Made by a program: the position numbers and the translations under genes. Under the pieces are notes generated by a model, which was given only the letters and a program-made list of their open reading frames with translations, was not told the DNA's origin and ran no database searches. This document shows, piece by piece, positions 5,570-23,729 of a DNA stretch of 36,901 nucleotides. Numbering within the stretch: position 1 is the first letter of the stretch; each line of letters begins with the position of its first letter. The stretch comes from Corallococcus praedator (GTDB lineage: Bacteria > Myxococcota > Myxococcia > Myxococcales > Myxococcaceae), in NCBI RefSeq assembly GCF_003612125.1, contig NZ_RAWI01000046.1, forward strand, positions 1-36,901, given 5' to 3'.

Positions 5570-6604
5570 ATGGAGCTTGAAGGCTCCGAGCGGGAGGAAC
5601 TCACCCACGCCCTACTGGGCGCATTCTCCTCGGTGGAGGAGCTCCACCGGATGGTCACGGTGAAGTGCGGTCGGGACTTCGTGCCTTCCATGGAGCGGGA
5701 GGGCGCGGCCCGGGCCCGGGCGCTCGTGCACACCGCGGAGACGGAAGGGTGGACGGACGTGCTCGTGCGCGGCGCGCAGGCGGCGGCGCCGGGCCATCCG
5801 CGCATCCGGCGCTTCCTCCAGTCGTATTTCTCCTCCGTGCAGCGCAGCATCTCCGGCAGCGCGTTGGCGCGCATCGTCCAGGCGGCGAAGCAGCCGATGA
5901 CGCCGGAGGCCTGGAGGGACCGGCTGACCCTCCTGTCGCGGCGCGTGTGCCGGGTGGAGCTGGACGGAGGCCGCGCGCTGGGCACGGGCTTCTTGGTGGC
6001 GCCGGACGTGGTGCTCACCAACTCGCACGTCATCGAGCACCGGCTGGTGGAGGCGCTGCGCGTGCGCTTCGATTTGAAGGTGCTGCCCGACCGCATCGCG
6101 GTGCACCCCGGCCGCGTGTACGCGGTGACGGCGTGCCTGGCGCAGAGTCCGCACAGCCCCGCGGACCTGATGCATCCGCGCCCGCGTGAAGCCACGCGCG
6201 ACGAACTGGACTACGCCTTCCTGCAGATCCAGGACGCCCCCGGCGAGGACCGGCTGGGGGACCGTCCGCGCGGCTTCATCCCGTTGCCCCCGTCGCCCGC
6301 GCCCTTCACCACCGGCGCGCTGGCGCTCGTCGTGCAGCACCCCAAGGGCCGGCCGATGCAGGTGGCGCTGGACACGTTCCAGGCGCTCAACCGTTCACAC
6401 ACGCGCATCACGTACTGCACCAACACGCATCCGGGTTCGTCCGGTTCGCCGTGCTTCACGCAGGACCTGGAGCTGGTCGCGCTGCACCACAGCGGCGACC
6501 CGCGCCCCGGCCACGAATCCGCCGAGGACGACGAGGGCATCCCCCTGGAGACCATCCGTGCCAGCCTGCCGCCGGGCGTGTTGCGCCGCCTGGGTTGGGA
6601 CTGA
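5570..6604 (+). CDS. EAD1-like domain fused to trypsin-like serine protease
   Basis: This is a 344-aa cytoplasmic protease with no signal peptide. ATG 5570 is chosen because AGAGGA lies about 6 nt upstream; the frame stays open further upstream without start support. Residues about 5-88 match the effector-associated domain 1 pattern: a helical region with ELTHALLGAFSSVEELHRM, then ARALVHTAETEGW and LVRGAQAAAPGHPRIRRFL. Residues about 120-335 are a chymotrypsin-fold protease with His153 (TNSHVIEH), Asp214 (DELDYAFLQI) and Ser291 (PGSSGSPCF). In described conflict systems EADs link a regulatory STAND-type ATPase or sensor to an effector through like-with-like domain contacts, and EAD-trypsin is a known effector arrangement. 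No EAD-bearing ATPase is in the window. The downstream membrane protein follows after 57 nt, so the two probably share a transcript. Confidence 0.85.
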   Translation: MELEGSEREELTHALLGAFSSVEELHRMVTVKCGRDFVPSMEREGAARARALVHTAETEGWTDVLVRGAQAAAPGHPRIRRFLQSYFSSVQRSISGSALARIVQAAKQPMTPEAWRDRLTLLSRRVCRVELDGGRALGTGFLVAPDVVLTNSHVIEHRLVEALRVRFDLKVLPDRIAVHPGRVYAVTACLAQSPHSPADLMHPRPREATRDELDYAFLQIQDAPGEDRLGDRPRGFIPLPPSPAPFTTGALALVVQHPKGRPMQVALDTFQALNRSHTRITYCTNTHPGSSGSPCFTQDLELVALHHSGDPRPGHESAEDDEGIPLETIRASLPPGVLRRLGWD

Positions 6605-12097: not shown

Positions 12098-12856
12098 TCA
12101 GCGCCAGTGATACAGGAAGGAAGCGCTGGGAACGAAGGCGGGCACGTCCTGTCCCTGCAATTGCATTCCGGCGAGGACCCCCAGGTCCACGGACCACCGT
12201 GGACCCATGAGCCGTGCGCCCGCCGTCGCGAAGGCGAAGGCATCGGCGATTCCTCGCGCCGGTGAGATGGCGGCTTCGCCCGCGAGGCCCCAGTGCTCGC
12301 CCATGCGCAGGAAGCCCCCCAGCATGGGCAGCACCATCAGGCCCCCCTCTTCGTCAGTGGCCCAGGCGTAGATGGGCTGGACCGTGAGGGAGAGGTTCGC
12401 GTCGCCCGTCCCGTAGGTGAGGGTGCCGTAGGCGGCGACGGCGTTGTAGAGCCCCCACGAGCCCGGGAAGTCGCTGTCGTAGGAGCCTCCCTGGACACCG
12501 AAGGCCAGATGCAGCTTCTCGGTCAGGGGCGTGGTCAGCTTGATGCCACCGAGGAGGCTGAAGGAGGTGTCACGGAACATCACCTGGAAGGGGATGGCCG
12601 AGGCAAGGTGCACGGACACGCGCTCGCTCAGGCCCACCTCCGCGACGGTGGCGAAGAGCGCCTGCTGTCCGATGAAACCCTCTCCCGCGTGAAGCGGAAG
12701 CGCCGTGGATCCGGTGAGGCCGCGCGTGCGGGAGGGATTCTCGAACCAGCCGCTGGATGAGGATGGAAGTGGCGCCTCGCCCGGCTCCTGGGCGCTGGCG
12801 GAAGCGCCGGGGAGGGCCAGCCACAACATGAACAGACAGATGCAACGTGGTGTCAT
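12098..12856 (-). CDS. secreted/outer-membrane protein, tandem paralogue A
   Basis: This is a 252-aa exported protein with a signal peptide ending near ASASAQEP, followed by a Ser-rich linker (PLPSSSSGW). The remainder alternates hydrophobic and polar residues in short strands, is rich in Gly/aromatics, and ends in SFLYHWR. This is suggestive of a small outer-membrane beta-barrel, although the terminal residue is Arg rather than Phe. It is clearly a duplicate of the neighbouring upstream gene: RTRGL(T/L)GSTALPLH, GEGFIGQQALFATVAEVGLS and VMVLPMLGGF-type blocks are shared. Start ATG 12856 has AGGGGG 5 nt upstream. No enzyme motif is visible and function is unknown. Confidence 0.7.
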   Translation of the reverse strand: MTPRCICLFMLWLALPGASASAQEPGEAPLPSSSSGWFENPSRTRGLTGSTALPLHAGEGFIGQQALFATVAEVGLSERVSVHLASAIPFQVMFRDTSFSLLGGIKLTTPLTEKLHLAFGVQGGSYDSDFPGSWGLYNAVAAYGTLTYGTGDANLSLTVQPIYAWATDEEGGLMVLPMLGGFLRMGEHWGLAGEAAISPARGIADAFAFATAGARLMGPRWSVDLGVLAGMQLQGQDVPAFVPSASFLYHWR

Positions 12857-13023: not shown

Positions 13024-13773
13024 TCAGCGCCAGTGAAACAGGAATGAGCCTCCGGGCAGCACGGAGGGTCGGTCCGCGTCCTTCCATTTCTGTTCGGCGA
13101 GGACCCCCAGGTCCAGCGACCAGTGCCGTCCCATGAACCGCGCGCCCGCCGTCGCGAAGCCGAACGCGCCGCTGACGCCATCGACCGGGGAGAGCGCGAC
13201 CTCTCCCGCGAGGCCCCAGTGCTCCCCCAGCCGGACGAAGCCTCCCAGCATGGGCAGCACCATCACGCTCCCGGAGTGGAAGCTTCCCCAGGCGACGAAG
13301 GGCTGGACCGTGAGCGATACATGGGCGTCACCCGTTCCGTACGTGAGGATGCCGTAGACCGCGACGGCGTTGAGCGTCTGCAATTCGTAGAGGTCGCTGT
13401 CGAAGCTGCCTCCCTGGACGCCGAACGCCAGATGCAGCCGCTCGGTCAGCGGACGCGTCACCTTGATGCCCCCCATGAGGCTGAAGGGCACGTCGCTGAA
13501 GGTCCGGGCCAGTGCGACGACGGGGACGGCCGAGGCCACGCTCACGGATACGCGCTCGCTCAGGCCCACCTCCGCGACGGTGGCGAAGAGCGCCTGCTGC
13601 CCGATGAAGCCCTCTCCCTCATGCAGCGGAAGCGCGGTCGAACCGAGCAGCCCGCGCGTGCGGGCGGGATTCTCGAACCAGGCGCTGGACGAAGACGGCA
13701 CAGGCTCCCCGGCGCTCGCGGACGCGCCAGGGAGGAGCCACCACAACAGCATCAGACAACCGAAACGCAGCAT
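13024..13773 (-). CDS. secreted/outer-membrane protein, tandem paralogue B
   Basis: This is a 249-aa exported protein and the tandem duplicate of the gene at 12098-12856. It has a signal peptide (LRFGCLMLLWWLLPGASASA), a PSSSSAW linker, then a strand-rich body ending SFLFHWR. Compared with paralogue A it differs most in the loops, for example residues after SAVPVVAL and around DSDLYELQT, while the strand cores are conserved; that is the usual pattern for a small beta-barrel. ATG 13773 is chosen since GGAG lies 8 nt upstream and it aligns with paralogue A; GTG 13779 is two codons earlier and possible. No catalytic motif is visible. Confidence 0.7.
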   Translation of the reverse strand: MLRFGCLMLLWWLLPGASASAGEPVPSSSSAWFENPARTRGLLGSTALPLHEGEGFIGQQALFATVAEVGLSERVSVSVASAVPVVALARTFSDVPFSLMGGIKVTRPLTERLHLAFGVQGGSFDSDLYELQTLNAVAVYGILTYGTGDAHVSLTVQPFVAWGSFHSGSVMVLPMLGGFVRLGEHWGLAGEVALSPVDGVSGAFGFATAGARFMGRHWSLDLGVLAEQKWKDADRPSVLPGGSFLFHWR

Positions 13774-13937
13774 CTTCACTTCTCCCCCTCGTGGTGGCGC
13801 GCCTCCAAGGCAACCCCCATGCCACGGGGCACGAGCGCAGGGGCCACGAGGGAGTTCGCTCCGCCGCGCCCTCCTGGATCCGGACACGCGCGTCATGGCG
13901 CCATGGATTCACCACGGCCCTGACGCCGAGGAGACGC

Positions 13938-18301: not shown

Positions 18302-18520
18302 GCGAACCCCCGGTTTCCAATGCCTTCGCAGGCAGCGCCTGGGGGGGCTTGCTCCCACCCCGAAGCGCACACCAGAGGGTAGGCCCTCGGCCCACGCACG
18401 GCAGCGGACGCTCGGCACGCTCGCAGGCCGGTGCGGGCCTTGTCGTCCCGCGGGGCCGGGCAGGGAAGCCTCCTTTGGGCCGTCTCTTGAAGGCCCTGGA
18501 GCACCTCCCAGATTTCCTGC

Positions 18521-18787
18521 ATGGAACTCCTGGTGGTCCCCCTCCAACCCCGCTTCGAGCAGCTCCTCAGGGAGCAGCTGCGCCGGTTGGCGATGACGAT
18601 GACGCGCGAGCAGTTGGTCCAGCTCCGGCTGGAGCAACTGTATGACTGGGAGAAGGTGGAGGACCCCGTCACGCGCCGCTTCTTCCGTGCGTCCACCCTG
18701 GCGTGGACCCCGGAGGAATTGAAGGCACTCGTCGAGGCCACCCTCCGTGCGTACCTGCCCGAAGAGGAACGGGAGGAGGTCCACTGA
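18521..18787 (+). CDS. small conserved-looking protein, first gene of the PLD cluster
   Basis: This is an 88-aa protein with no family I recognise. It is helical and charged (FEQLLREQLRRLAMTMTREQ, then LRLEQLYDWEKVEDPVTRRF, then WTPEELKALVEATLRAYLPE) with an acidic tail. There is no signal peptide or TM segment. The ribosome-binding site before ATG 18521 is poor. Its stop overlaps the next start by one base (TGATG), so expression is coupled to the next gene. Coupling with four further genes argues it is a real gene and a subunit or adaptor of the same system. Confidence 0.7.
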   Translation: MELLVVPLQPRFEQLLREQLRRLAMTMTREQLVQLRLEQLYDWEKVEDPVTRRFFRASTLAWTPEELKALVEATLRAYLPEEEREEVH

Positions 18788-18990
18788 TGGGCTATCCCAA
18801 CCTCGGAAATTTCGCGGACATGCTCCACCTGGACCCGGAGTTCGACCCCAACGCCCTGCCAGGCGACAGCACGTCCATCGACCTGTTCGACTTCGGCGAC
18901 CCCTACGCGCCCACCAGCCCCGAGGACCAGGCCCTGCGGGACTTCGAACGGATGCTCCAACTGCTGCTCGAGGAAGCGGGCAGCATGTAG
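18787..18990 (+). CDS. small acidic protein in the PLD cluster
   Basis: This is a 67-aa, strongly acidic protein without recognised domains. ATG 18787 overlaps the stop of the previous gene by one base (TGATG), which fixes the start. The N-terminal half is rich in Asp, Pro and Asn (FADMLHLDPEFDPNALPG, STSIDLFDFGDPYAP) and looks disordered or DNA-mimic-like in charge. The C-terminal part (EDQALRDFERMLQLLLEEAG) should form one amphipathic helix. The resemblance to acidic mimic or inhibitor peptides is only a charge observation. Confidence 0.65.
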   Translation: MGYPNLGNFADMLHLDPEFDPNALPGDSTSIDLFDFGDPYAPTSPEDQALRDFERMLQLLLEEAGSM

Positions 18991-19004
18991 CGAGGACGTC
19001 CCCC

Positions 19005-19298
19005 ATGCCCATGCCCCCCACATACGAACGGCTGGAAGCCATCGAGGATTTGCTGGAGGAGCACCGCCTGCTCATCCACGAACAGCTCGCGACGCTCTCC
19101 TGGCAGGAGGTGGCGCTGGTCTTCCAGGCCGAACAGGAGGCGAAGGCGAAGACCCCTTCGGAGAAGGAGGCGGCGCCACGGGTCTCCCTGGCGCTGGCGG
19201 CGTACCAGGACTTCACGCGCCGGTTGCTCCTCACCTACCGACACTATGAGCAGGGATTGCGGGAGCGGCTGGCGACCGTGACCGCGGAGGCGCCATGA
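19005..19298 (+). CDS. small helical protein in the PLD cluster
   Basis: This is a 97-aa protein with no recognised family. It is almost entirely helical with heptad-like Leu spacing (YERLEAIEDLLEEHRLLIHE, then a linker with AKAKTPSEKEA, then a second helix YQDFTRRLLLTYRHYEQGLR), so it probably forms a helical hairpin or coiled-coil oligomer. ATG 19005 is chosen with GAGG 9 nt upstream; ATG 19011 is an alternative. It starts 14 nt after the previous stop. Its stop overlaps the following PLD gene as ATGA. Confidence 0.7.
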   Translation: MPMPPTYERLEAIEDLLEEHRLLIHEQLATLSWQEVALVFQAEQEAKAKTPSEKEAAPRVSLALAAYQDFTRRLLLTYRHYEQGLRERLATVTAEAP

Positions 19299-19819
19299 GC
19301 TTCGAGGCCTTTCCCGTGTCTGAAGGCACGCTGCTCCACGACGGGGACTACGCGCCCTTCGCGGCGAGCTGGTTCGCGCTGGCGCGCAAGCGGCTCTGGG
19401 TGTCTGTCTTCATCATCGACACGCGGGTGTTGAGGGATCCGCTGCGGTCGGTGCGGGGCCTGGTGGAGCAACTGGCCCAGGCGCGGTGGCGCAACGTGGA
19501 CGTACGGGTGCTGGTGGGGGTGTCGGACACGCCGGAGGTCCACATCGCCAACACCACCTCCGCGCTCTACATGCGGGAGCTGGGCTTGCCGGTGCGGCTC
19601 TTCCACTCCGAACGTCACGTGAGCACCCACAGCAAGTTCGTCATCGTGGATGACCGGGTGTTGCTGGGCAGTCACAACTGGACGCACTCCGCCTTCCACG
19701 TGAGCCATGAGGATTCCCTGGCGGTGAGCTCCCCGCAGCTCGCGATGGGGCTGGGGCAGGACTTCGAGCGGCTCTGGACCGAGGGTGCGCGCAAAGCGGA
19801 GGCAACCCATGCGTCCTGA
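19295..19819 (+). CDS. single-domain phospholipase D-fold protein (HKD family)
   Basis: This is a 174-aa cytoplasmic protein of the PLD superfamily with a single HxKxxxxD motif: His112, Lys114, Asp119, then GSHNW at 125-129 and Glu139. The motif HSKFVIVDDRVLLGSHNW is intact. One HKD per chain is the layout of Nuc-type nucleases and BfiI-type restriction subunits, which dimerise to build one active site; cardiolipin synthases instead carry two. Without a signal peptide or TM it is more likely a nuclease or processing enzyme than a lipid synthase. It overlaps the previous stop by 4 nt and the next gene by 11 nt, so it may pair with the next PLD protein. Confidence 0.85.
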   Translation: MSFEAFPVSEGTLLHDGDYAPFAASWFALARKRLWVSVFIIDTRVLRDPLRSVRGLVEQLAQARWRNVDVRVLVGVSDTPEVHIANTTSALYMRELGLPVRLFHSERHVSTHSKFVIVDDRVLLGSHNWTHSAFHVSHEDSLAVSSPQLAMGLGQDFERLWTEGARKAEATHAS

Positions 19820-21143
19820 GTGGTTCGTGCCGATGGTGCGTGGCTGGTCGGAGCAGGTGCGGTGGGAGCCGGGCGAGCTGGAGCGGGCCACCGGGCTGCT
19901 GGTGGAACTCAGCCGCGCGCGTGGCGGGGAGCTCGTCTTGGATGAGGCCTCCGACGAGGACATCGCGCGCCAGTTCGCCCTGCGCCGGGCCCGGGAGGTG
20001 CTGCAACGGCGGATGAGCCGCTACGCCCGTGCGCTGGAGGAAGGCGCCGCGTCCGCCCGCTACAGCAGGCCCGTGCGCGAGGAGGCTGACACGTCCGCGC
20101 TGCCCTTCGTGACACCGCACGAGTGGGTGGATGCCCTGGATGTGAACGCGGCCAGCGCGGAGGAGCTGGAAGGGCTGCCGGGCCTGGGGCGGGTGCTGGC
20201 GGAGCGCATCGTGAGCTACCGCCGCGCGCACGGCCCCTTCCTTACGCTGGAGTCCCTGCTGCGGGTGGAGGGCCTGGGCGTGAAGGGGCTGGAGCAGCTT
20301 CGCGGGCGGCTCCTCCTGGAGGAGCGCCCGCCGGTGTTCCGGAGCGAGGCGCTGGAGGCGTTCGTCCAGGAGCCCTCCTTCGCCCGGTACGTGCAATGGG
20401 TGGCCGCCAGCGGTGGCTCGTTCCAGTGGCGTCGCGCGCGGGGACAGGGCCCGGTGGCGCAGGTGCTGATGGAACTGGAGGAGGCCCTGCGGGATGCGCG
20501 GGAGCACCCCTACGGAGTGGCACGGCGTCTGGGGGACACGCGGGCGAGCGTGGCGCGGACCGAACAGGAACGGCTGGAGCAGGCCCGTGCCCACGCCGAG
20601 GACACCTCCGGCACGGTCCGGGCGGGTGTGCTGTTGAGGCACGGCCAGTACCCGGAGTTCGTGGAGAGTCTGCTCTCAGAAGCGGCGCGCTCCGTGCGGG
20701 TCGTCCTCTTCTTCTTCCGGTACGTGGATGCGAAATACCCCACACATGGCCTGCTGCAAAAGCTCATCGCGGCGCATGAGCGCGGCGTGGACGTCAAGGT
20801 CATCCTGGACCAGGACGCGAAGGGGGATGTCTATCATTCCCGCATCATCAACCTGCCGGCCTTCCAGGCGCTGACGGCCCGCAAGGTGCCGGTGCGCTAC
20901 GACACGGCGAGCCGACTCACGCACTCCAAGCTGGTGCTGGTGGACAACAGGCACCTGGTGATGGGCAGCCACAACTGGACGTTGAGCTCGTTCACCCGCT
21001 ACGACGAGACGAGCCTGTATCTGGACTCGGAGCCGCTGGGCGCGCGGATGGAAGAGCGCTTCCGGGCGCTGTGGACGGAGAAGGCGCAGCGGGAAGCCGC
21101 TGCCTCCCCCCTGGCCGCGGAGTCCGCGGTGGCCGAACCCTGA
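19809..21143 (+). CDS. helix-hairpin-helix / phospholipase D fusion protein
   Basis: This is a 444-aa cytoplasmic protein. Residues 1-100 are helical. A ComEA-type double helix-hairpin-helix is at about 108-168: DVNAASAEELEGLPGLGRVL and then LLRVEGLGVKGLEQLRGRL, a fold that binds duplex DNA without sequence specificity. A helical linker follows (170-265), then one PLD domain at about 271-425 with His372, Lys374, Asp379 and GSHNW at 386-390, plus Glu400 in RYDET. The DNA-binding fold next to a nuclease-capable fold strongly suggests a DNA-acting enzyme. ATG 19809 overlaps the preceding PLD gene by 11 nt; an upstream in-frame GTG-type start is possible but would increase the overlap. Catalytic residues look complete. 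Confidence 0.85.
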   Translation: MRPEWFVPMVRGWSEQVRWEPGELERATGLLVELSRARGGELVLDEASDEDIARQFALRRAREVLQRRMSRYARALEEGAASARYSRPVREEADTSALPFVTPHEWVDALDVNAASAEELEGLPGLGRVLAERIVSYRRAHGPFLTLESLLRVEGLGVKGLEQLRGRLLLEERPPVFRSEALEAFVQEPSFARYVQWVAASGGSFQWRRARGQGPVAQVLMELEEALRDAREHPYGVARRLGDTRASVARTEQERLEQARAHAEDTSGTVRAGVLLRHGQYPEFVESLLSEAARSVRVVLFFFRYVDAKYPTHGLLQKLIAAHERGVDVKVILDQDAKGDVYHSRIINLPAFQALTARKVPVRYDTASRLTHSKLVLVDNRHLVMGSHNWTLSSFTRYDETSLYLDSEPLGARMEERFRALWTEKAQREAAASPLAAESAVAEP

Positions 21144-21209
21144 AGCCACTTCCGGCGCCAGCACTCCCTCGGGGTGCACGAAGGACCTCCGACGGAGTAG
21201 ACACGGGGC

Positions 21210-23729
21210 ATGTCCGCCCCGCTCGACAGCGGCGTGCGCCGGGGCGCCGAGGTGCGCTGCCCCGGATGCATCCGCTTCATCCCGTCCGACGTCGCCTGCC
21301 CGCACTGCTTCTGTGGCCCCGTCCCGCCAGAGCGCTACGGCGCCGCGCGCGAGTTGTTGAAGTCCGGGGTGGACCGCTTCGCCCTGGCGGCCCGCACCGC
21401 CGCGCTGGACCCTTCCCAGGTGGAAGCCCTGGCGGCCCGCTATGCACGGCAATGGGGCGTGGCGCTGCGGCTCATCGAGGACGCGCGGCGCATCGAGTCC
21501 CGGCTGGTGCAACGCGGCTTCTCGCTCGACATGGAGGATGCCTGGGCGGCCGCCCTGCCCATGGACGAAGTCCTCCTCACCGAGCGCATCGCCCCGTTCA
21601 GTCCCCTGCCGGACTCCCTCGCGTACCTGTCCAACAAGGCGCCGGACGCGGACCTGCGCAACCTGGCGGCGCTCGCGTGGGTGCACGAAGGCACGGCCTC
21701 CCAGGACGCGCGCGCCACGGTGCGCTACCTGCTGCACCAGGACGGGCGCATGGCGGTGGAGGCGATGCTGGCCCTGACGCGCTGGCGCAACGCCTTCCCC
21801 GTCCGGCTCACCCCCGACGAGCGCGAGCGGATCCGCCTGCTGGCCCTGGGCGTGCTGGACGTGCCCGGAATCGGCGCGCGCGCCGCCGTCGCCTGGACGC
21901 GGGTGTCGCGAGAGGCGCCCCCCTCCGTCGTGTCGGCCGCGCTGCACCAGGGCCTTTATGGCACCGACCTGGACGTGCGCTTCGAATGCGCGCTGGCCCT
22001 GCGGGACGAGGTGGAGGTGGCGCAGGCGTTGGACTCGCCGGACGCGGACACCGTCACCTTCGTCCGGCGCACGCTGAGCGGGTGGGGCTCACCGCTGCTC
22101 TTCCCCCGGCTGAAGCGCGAGGGCAACGAGCGCTTCGTGCAGGAGGTGCTCAGGGACCTGCCCTTCCCCCCGCCCGAAGGGGCCCTGGACGCGCTGCTCA
22201 CCGTGTCCGTGCGCACCGTCGGTTCCCTCGCGGATGAACTCCTGCGCCTCGCGAAGCGGCAGTCCTTCCACGCCTGGGGGCTGGAGAACCAGCAGCGCTG
22301 GGCCCGCTGGGCGCGCTCGGTGCTGCGCGACCTGCCCGCGGAGACCGCGCTGCACTTCTTCGGCTGGGCCGCCACCCCCGGCGACACCGCCGAGCCTCCC
22401 GAGGAGGAGGAGACGGAGGCGATGTGGTGCTTCCTGGAGGAGACGGTGCATGCGATTGAGCGCGGCGCGGAGAAGGACCGCATCGCGTGCTTCAAGGACT
22501 TCCTCTTCGTGCACTTCCTCCACCACGCGGGGGTGGATGAACAGCGGCGGCTGAACGACTGGGCTCGCGACCCATACAGCGGTGAGGCCCTGCTGGAGGC
22601 CCTGGTGATGTTCCCCTCGCGGCGCGAGCAGGCGCGCCTTCCCGCCTCCGGCGTCGAACACGCGGCCCGGCTGTTGATGGCGGTCTGGGAGGGACCGGAT
22701 CAGCACCTCCTGGTGGCCCCCATGTCCCGCGTGGCGCGGCAGTGGAGCGCGTACTCCGGACGCGAGGTCCTGGTGGAGGCCGTCTGGCAGCGCTTCCAAT
22801 CCCATCCCTTCGAACGCGGCCCGTTGCTCGCCGCCTTCGCCGGCTGGCGCGACCGCCTGTGGGAGAAGCAGCGCGAGGCGGAGCCCGACGCCCTGGTGCG
22901 CTTCCAGGCGTGGTGGCGCCTGGACCCCGTGGGGCTCTATCCCCACGCGGAGCAACTGCTGGCGGAGGTGACGCTGGACGTGCTGCCCCGCAGGCTGCGA
23001 GCCCTCTGGGCCGCGGCGGAGGAGACCGTGGGCACGCGCCCGCGCACCGCGTCCCTCTCCGTGTCCAAGGGGGCCTGGGCGCTGCTCCACGGGGTGGAGT
23101 CAGAAGACCCGCGCCACCTCCAGGAGATGGAGGCGGAGCTGGCGTACTTCGAGTCGCGCCTCCCCGCCTTCGAGCAGCGCGTGCGCACCACGCCGTCGCC
23201 GCCGGAGGAGTCCAACATCCACCGCGACTTCCTGGACGACACGCACGACGCGCTGCGGATGATGCGCGAGCGTCGCGACCGCCGCCGCGCGCACGAGGAG
23301 CGCGAGCGCGAACGTGAAATCGAACGCCAGGTGGCCGAGTCCCGCCGCCGCGACCAGGAGCGCCGGGCCGAGGAGGAGCGCCGCGCCGCCGAAGCCCGCG
23401 AGGCCGCCCGGCTGGTGGAGCACGGGAAGGAGCAGGCCCGGGCCCTGGCCAATGCCCGCATGTTGATGACGGACCTCCAGCCCCAGGTGCCCGCGCGCCC
23501 GCTGGACCGGGAGGTGCTCTTCCCCGGCACGTCCCTGCCCACGCTCCTGCAATACGCGCGGATGCTCAAGGCGCTGCAGGGGGGCGCGGACGTGCTGAAG
23601 CTCTTCGAGGTCGTGGGACTGACGCCCGCCACCTGGGCCACGCAGGCGAACGCCTGGGGCCAGGCGATGGTGGGCCGGCCGGAGCTGGCCATCCGCTTCT
23701 CCGAACTGCTCCAGGCGCCCTGGGCGTGA
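21210..23729 (+). CDS. large protein: N-terminal zinc ribbon, helical repeats, coiled coil
   Basis: This is an 839-aa soluble protein. A four- or five-cysteine cluster is at residues 17-35 (CPGCIRFIPS, then ACPHCFCG), with CxxC pairs typical of a zinc ribbon. Most of the body is helical and repeat-like, with short helices such as DADLRNLAALAWVHEG and DLDVRFECALALRDEVE, recalling HEAT-like repeats. Residues about 684-745 are a highly charged Arg/Glu coiled coil (RRAHEEREREREIERQ). The C-terminus contains a compact helical domain (about 765-839). No catalytic motif is visible. It lies 66 nt after the HhH-PLD gene on the same strand and probably shares the transcript, so it could be the scaffold or targeting subunit. 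I cannot name the family. Confidence 0.75.
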   Translation: MSAPLDSGVRRGAEVRCPGCIRFIPSDVACPHCFCGPVPPERYGAARELLKSGVDRFALAARTAALDPSQVEALAARYARQWGVALRLIEDARRIESRLVQRGFSLDMEDAWAAALPMDEVLLTERIAPFSPLPDSLAYLSNKAPDADLRNLAALAWVHEGTASQDARATVRYLLHQDGRMAVEAMLALTRWRNAFPVRLTPDERERIRLLALGVLDVPGIGARAAVAWTRVSREAPPSVVSAALHQGLYGTDLDVRFECALALRDEVEVAQALDSPDADTVTFVRRTLSGWGSPLLFPRLKREGNERFVQEVLRDLPFPPPEGALDALLTVSVRTVGSLADELLRLAKRQSFHAWGLENQQRWARWARSVLRDLPAETALHFFGWAATPGDTAEPPEEEETEAMWCFLEETVHAIERGAEKDRIACFKDFLFVHFLHHAGVDEQRRLNDWARDPYSGEALLEALVMFPSRREQARLPASGVEHAARLLMAVWEGPDQHLLVAPMSRVARQWSAYSGREVLVEAVWQRFQSHPFERGPLLAAFAGWRDRLWEKQREAEPDALVRFQAWWRLDPVGLYPHAEQLLAEVTLDVLPRRLRALWAAAEETVGTRPRTASLSVSKGAWALLHGVESEDPRHLQEMEAELAYFESRLPAFEQRVRTTPSPPEESNIHRDFLDDTHDALRMMRERRDRRRAHEEREREREIERQVAESRRRDQERRAEEERRAAEAREAARLVEHGKEQARALANARMLMTDLQPQVPARPLDREVLFPGTSLPTLLQYARMLKALQGGADVLKLFEVVGLTPATWATQANAWGQAMVGRPELAIRFSELLQAPWA

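What the first reader, a model, noticed from the sequence alone, without database searches (positions are those of the whole stretch)
18521..23729. Six-gene PLD cluster with no known name: candidate nucleic-acid-targeting system
Three small unknown proteins, a single-HKD PLD protein, an HhH-PLD fusion and a zinc-ribbon/helical-repeat protein lie in one direction. Junctions are TGATG, 14 nt, ATGA, 11-nt overlap and 66 nt. Both PLD motifs look intact and both proteins lack export signals. PLD nucleases occur in defence systems such as DISARM (DrmC) and BfiI restriction, but this combination of parts matches none that I know, and no ATPase or methylase is present.
Basis: partly seen in the sequence, partly recalled or inferred. 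Interest (0 to 1): 0.75.

Follow-up and report, generated by a model that had tools for sequence, protein, structure and literature searches.

The report
Five-gene paired PLD-nuclease cassette in Corallococcus
In a few Corallococcus soil bacteria, five tightly packed genes (three small unknown proteins and two matched DNA/RNA-cutting-type enzymes, one with a DNA-binding domain) come and go as a block, which looks like an uncharacterised small nuclease module, possibly for immunity, although its function is untested.

Summary
The unit, however, is five genes (18521-21143), not six. The 839-aa gene at 21210-23729 is a Corallococcus core gene: it is in 16/16 genomes, beside the same SDR and quinone-reductase-like genes, and in other genera of the family. 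It is adjacent to the PLD genes only in some genomes. The five-gene block occurs complete, in the same order and with near-identical overlaps, in 5/16 Corallococcus genomes; its genes have no family-specific match in the other 179 Myxococcota genomes searched. A close relative (G137) lacks exactly 18426-21166, so the block is accessory; in two species it sits elsewhere in the same variable region. All five genes show mostly purifying selection. The two PLD proteins are each other's closest relatives and resemble nucleic-acid PLDs (Nuc, Zucchini/PLD6, PLD3/4, DrmC); neither has a transmembrane or export segment. g5 carries a ComEA/EEPD1-type helix-hairpin-helix domain. The three small proteins match nothing known. 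Best reading: an accessory two-subunit PLD nuclease with three small partner proteins, probably a genetic-conflict (defence-type) module. The defence role is inferred, not shown. It is not DISARM.

The parts
18451..18520 (+). conserved leader (probable promoter/5' region) of the cassette
   Evidence: DNA conserved in all five copies, including GGCCGGGCAGGG, although upstream genes differ
18521..18787 (+). g1, 88 aa, predicted small helical bundle, no known family
   Evidence: AF2 mean pLDDT 78, all helical; no fold or family match of note; dN/dS 0.17-0.37
18787..18990 (+). g2, 67 aa, strongly acidic (net about -13, pI 4.05), conserved IDLFDFGxPY motif
19005..19298 (+). g3, 97 aa, no known family
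   Evidence: only in the five cassette genomes
19295..19819 (+). g4, 174 aa, single-HKD PLD-like protein (HSKFVIVDDRVLLGSHN at residue 112)
   Evidence: best match outside its own family in 195 genomes is g5
19809..21143 (+). g5, 444 aa, N-terminal region + ComEA/EEPD1-type HhH (about 110-168) + middle region + single-HKD PLD (287-422)
21167..23729 (+). g6 (CDS 21210-23729, 839 aa) and its own upstream DNA: core gene, NOT part of the cassette
   Evidence: 16/16 Corallococcus, other genera; conserved block restarts at about 21167 in genomes with and without the cassette

Best explanation
g1-g5 (18451-21143) are one accessory, translationally coupled cassette encoding a cytoplasmic PLD-family nuclease made of two duplicated single-HKD subunits. 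g4 and g5 would pair so that each gives one HKD half-site to a joint active site, the HhH domain of g5 would hold DNA (or structured RNA), and the three small proteins (helical g1, acidic g2, unknown g3) would be partners that sense, load or restrain the nuclease. The most likely purpose is genetic conflict, such as anti-phage or anti-plasmid defence. Shown here: the unit, its limits, its patchy distribution, selection, domain content and intact motifs. Inferred: the g4-g5 heterodimer, DNA as substrate, the roles of g1-g3, and the defence purpose (about 0.35 on its own).
For: Complete block, same order and near-identical overlaps in five genomes. Present in 5/16 Corallococcus genomes, with no family-specific hit in the other 179 Myxococcota genomes. 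Absent at nearly exactly 18426-21166 in close relative G137 and no match anywhere in G137 or G135; the g6 tree needs three changes, e.g. one gain and two losses. Different position in G074/G136. In G031 a defence-type MBL gene (LmuA model 2.6e-63) lies in the 14 kb between g5 and g6. g4 and g5 are mutual nearest PLD relatives. Nearest solved PLDs include nucleic-acid enzymes: Nuc, PLD6/Zucchini, PLD3/4, virion nicking-joining enzyme. HhH nearest to EEPD1 and ComEA. No transmembrane or export segment.
Against: Only one of the neighbouring cargo genes is defence-like; most neighbours are ordinary (HYR repeats, SnoaL, alpha/beta hydrolase, SDRs). No methylase, helicase or other self/non-self module. 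Restricted to one clade of one genus, without evidence of wide horizontal spread. No phage or viral relative found for the genes searched. The AF2 model of g5 failed (pLDDT 44), so its architecture rests on sequence profiles.
Confidence: 0.45

Rival explanations
1. A DNA-repair or nucleic-acid processing accessory: an HhH-nuclease pair acting on damaged or branched host DNA or RNA (compare EEPD1, HhH plus EEP nuclease), with the small proteins as cofactors.
For: HhH of g5 is nearest to EEPD1 and ComEA in the PDB; cassette is chromosomal and apparently vertical within one clade.
Against: Patchy presence with two absences in close relatives is unusual for repair functions; three lineage-specific small proteins are not expected.
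Confidence: 0.25
2. A toxin-antitoxin-like or selfish cassette: the PLD pair is a toxic nuclease and one or more of g1-g3 (acidic g2 as a possible DNA mimic) neutralise it.
For: Small genes precede the nucleases with translational coupling; g2 net charge about -13.
Against: Five genes is large for a TA locus; no family match to TA proteins; g2 is the least constrained gene.
Confidence: 0.15
3. Lipid enzymes (phospholipase or cardiolipin synthase type) with partner proteins.
For: Weak NCBIfam matches to cardiolipin synthase models, far below cut-offs; PLD-fold enzyme names are not decisive (PLD6 is annotated cardiolipin hydrolase).
Against: Single-HKD subunits with GSxNWT motif, no membrane segment, HhH domain, nearest profiles DrmC/NucT/Nuc.
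Confidence: 0.07
4. A real six-gene system in which g6 is an optional or loosely linked partner.
For: g6 is adjacent in G000 and G139.
Against: g6 is in 16/16 Corallococcus and in genera without the cassette; 14 kb or three genes away in other carriers; homology blocks break at 21161-21167.
Confidence: 0.03

Closest known systems
DrmC (PLD nuclease of DISARM)
   Same: PLD-like domain; best NCBIfam PLD model for both proteins (NF038319, E 6.7e-12 for g4 and 2e-11 for g5)
   Different: 45 and 44 bits against a cut-off of 133; no DrmA helicase, DrmB or methylase in the cassette; DrmC is a single protein without HhH
Nuc (pKM101) / NucT single-HKD nucleases
   Same: Single-HKD fold that works as a dimer (general knowledge); sequence match of the PLD domains
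   Different: Nuc is a homodimeric secreted or periplasmic enzyme (general knowledge); here two different subunits, no export segment, HhH fusion and three partners
PLD6/Zucchini
   Same: Closest solved relative of g4 (4ggj, E 1.2e-7)
   Different: Eukaryotic membrane-anchored homodimer of the piRNA pathway (general knowledge)
EEPD1 and ComEA HhH proteins
   Same: Same HhH_3-type domain as g5
   Different: Fused to an EEP nuclease or to a DNA-uptake protein, not to PLD
BfiI restriction enzyme
   Same: PLD-type nuclease fused to a DNA-binding domain (from general knowledge; not compared here)
   Different: BfiI has a specific DNA-recognition domain and partner methylases; none here

Membership tests
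PLD superfamily (PLDc_2) | HxKx4D motif and PLD-like domain above gathering score | tested here: met
   both proteins above cut-off, motif intact in all five copies
PLD nucleases (as against lipid PLDs) | nearest characterised relatives are nucleases; nuclease activity | tested here: inconclusive
   searches point to nucleases; activity cannot be tested here
DISARM | DrmA helicase, DrmB (DUF1998), methylase beside DrmC | tested here: not met
   none among g1-g5 or the adjacent genes examined; score below DrmC cut-off; definition from PMC9142583
Dpd / BREX / Druantia / Mokosh | large ATPase/helicase core | tested here: not met
   no ATPase in g1-g5; DpdK and MkoB/MkoC hits are to PLD domains only
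Restriction-modification with PLD nuclease (BfiI type) | cognate DNA methylase and a specific target-recognition domain | tested here: not met
   no methylase or recognition domain among g1-g5
HHH_3 DNA-binding domain | match above Pfam gathering score | tested here: met
   g5 110-168, 67.5 bits vs 27
Toxin-antitoxin system | toxicity of one gene neutralised by the other | not testable with these tools
   needs expression
Anti-phage defence system | protects against phage or plasmid | not testable with these tools
   needs challenge assays; indirect support only from location

The most novel reading that the evidence does not exclude
A previously undescribed, ATP-independent immune module: a heterodimeric PLD nuclease guided to foreign or abnormal nucleic acid by an HhH domain and controlled by three orphan small proteins, one of them an acidic nucleic-acid mimic, without a methylase, helicase or nucleotide signal.
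Probability: 0.2. Interest if true: 0.75.

Novelty: new variant of a known kind. Interest (0 to 1): 0.4.

Why it matters
PLD nucleases recur in defence systems (DISARM, Dpd, Druantia type III, BfiI) but usually beside a helicase or methylase. A compact cassette with only a duplicated PLD pair and three orphan small proteins would show how such nucleases can be controlled without an ATPase. It is small (2.7 kb) with natural present/absent relatives, so it is easy to move into a laboratory strain and test.

Tried and rejected
(1) Six-gene unit: rejected by comparative genomics. (2) DISARM or other known system: PADLOC/NCBIfam scores far below membership and no core genes. (3) Phage origin: no relative of g1, g3, g4 or g5 in the IMG/VR scans (close relatives only), and only HhH- or PLD-level hits for g5 in the phage collection; no PHROG for g2, g3 or g6, and unnamed PLD families or an insignificant hit for the rest. 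(4) Mobile-element ends: no terminal repeats and no transposase or integrase seen in the genes examined. (5) AF2 of g5 failed (mean pLDDT 44), so no fold search was made with it; g1 gave an all-helical model (78) without fold matches. (6) g1 and g3 show no relation to one another or to g5. (7) Plasmid hits of g4 with wider coverage (Rhizobium, Variovorax) have unrelated neighbourhoods. (8) A weak profile match of g1 to YbiA (2b3w, E 0.0023) is from a five-row profile, has no Pfam support and was not relied on. (9) A first g6 tree was wrong because minus-strand loci were not turned; redone. (10) The genome-contig scan used N-terminal g5 patterns, so it could find only close relatives; remote HhH-PLD relatives outside Myxococcota are not excluded.

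Full report
What is there. The window lies in a Corallococcus genome: GTDB-titled loci of the same family are C. sicarius, C. terminator and Corallococcus sp. CA053C, and the genome search places the carriers in the window's genus. g4 and g5 carry PLD-like domains with intact HKD motifs and g5 carries an HHH_3 domain; g1, g2, g3 and g6 match no Pfam family. All coding sequences have coding statistics typical of this genome and mostly dN/dS below 0.65 across the five carriers; g2, the shortest, ranges up to 0.90.

The unit is five genes. g6 is found in all 16 Corallococcus genomes searched and in 30 of 76 genomes of the family. In the Corallococcus neighbourhoods read it always lies beside the same SDR and quinone-reductase-like genes (w21, w22). 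The block g1-g5 is found complete in 5 of 16 Corallococcus genomes, and profiles of g3, g4 and g1 find no convincing relative in the other 179 Myxococcota genomes; g5 elsewhere matches only by its HhH or PLD domain. In G031 14 kb separate g5 from g6; in G136 three genes do; in G074 they lie on different contigs. In G137, a close relative by the g6 tree, the DNA is collinear with the window up to 18425 (apart from a gap at w12-w13) and again from 21167, and the cassette is missing, replaced by unrelated sequence. DNA similarity to G136 starts at 18451 and ends at 21080, inside the 3' end of g5. These independent breakpoints define the module as about 18426/18451 to 21143/21166. It includes a conserved leader upstream of g1. 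No repeats mark the ends. On the g6 tree the pattern needs three changes, for example one gain and two losses, inside one of the two clades of the genus. The interval between gene w11 and g6 varies from about 0.1 kb to 20.7 kb among the genomes read, so the site is a variable region; in G031 it also holds an MBL protein matching defence models (LmuA, Avs1a, RT-associated MBL).

Anatomy and likely working. g4 and g5 are each other's nearest PLD relatives: with the g4 profile nothing but g4 and g5 passes 1e-15 in 195 genomes, and profile comparison aligns g4 with residues 267-430 of g5. PLD enzymes need two HKD motifs per active site (general knowledge), so two single-HKD subunits made by coupled translation (11-nt overlap, kept in the carriers) suggest a heterodimer; this is inference. 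Among solved structures the PLD domains are nearest to PLD6/Zucchini, Nuc, PLD3/4, a virion nicking-joining enzyme and one bacterial phospholipase; the HhH is nearest to EEPD1 and ComEA. No protein has a segment hydrophobic enough for a membrane or export signal. This favours a cytoplasmic nuclease. g1 is predicted as a small helical bundle (moderate confidence); g2 is very acidic with a conserved IDLFDFGxPY motif; g3 is unknown. I propose that these load, sense for or restrain the nuclease; nothing here tests it.

Comparison with known systems. DISARM is defined by DrmA, DrmB and a methylase; DrmC is dispensable there (PMC9142583). None of the core parts is here and both PLD proteins score far below the DrmC cut-off. 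Hits to Mokosh and Dpd models are limited to the PLD domain. A 2025 survey of YprA-helicase systems (PMC12458937) describes PLD nucleases beside helicases; there is no helicase here. Literature searches found no description of an HhH-PLD/PLD cassette, within an open-access library only.

Verdict. A real, previously unnamed (as far as the libraries held here show) accessory five-gene cassette with a paired PLD nuclease. That it is a nuclease is likely; that it is an immune system is possible and unproven. The zinc-ribbon gene should be dropped from it.

Noticed in passing
window 5570-6604 (+): EAD1 (effector-associated domain) fused to a trypsin-like peptidase, a domain pair typical of bacterial conflict or NLR-like networks.
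   Followed up: no
L066:4587-8724 (-), and the low-scoring long reading frame L066:1-4032 (-) (G031, between g5 and g6): MBL-fold protein matching Lamassu LmuA (E 2.6e-63), Avs1a and RT-associated MBL models, next to a 1023-aa protein without family: a likely defence-type insertion in the same variable site.
   Followed up: partly
window 21210-23729 (+): 839-aa protein with an N-terminal CxxC-CxxC cluster and no Pfam match, core in Corallococcus and present in several other genera of the family; function unknown.
   Followed up: partly
window 12098-12829 and 13024-13779 (-): Two tandem related proteins of unknown family, with homologues at variable copy number in relatives.
   Followed up: no
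L067:3670-7146, L065:13702-16941, L086:883-4476: Large HYR/Big_13-type Ig-repeat proteins that vary strongly between relatives and recur around the cassette site.
   Followed up: no
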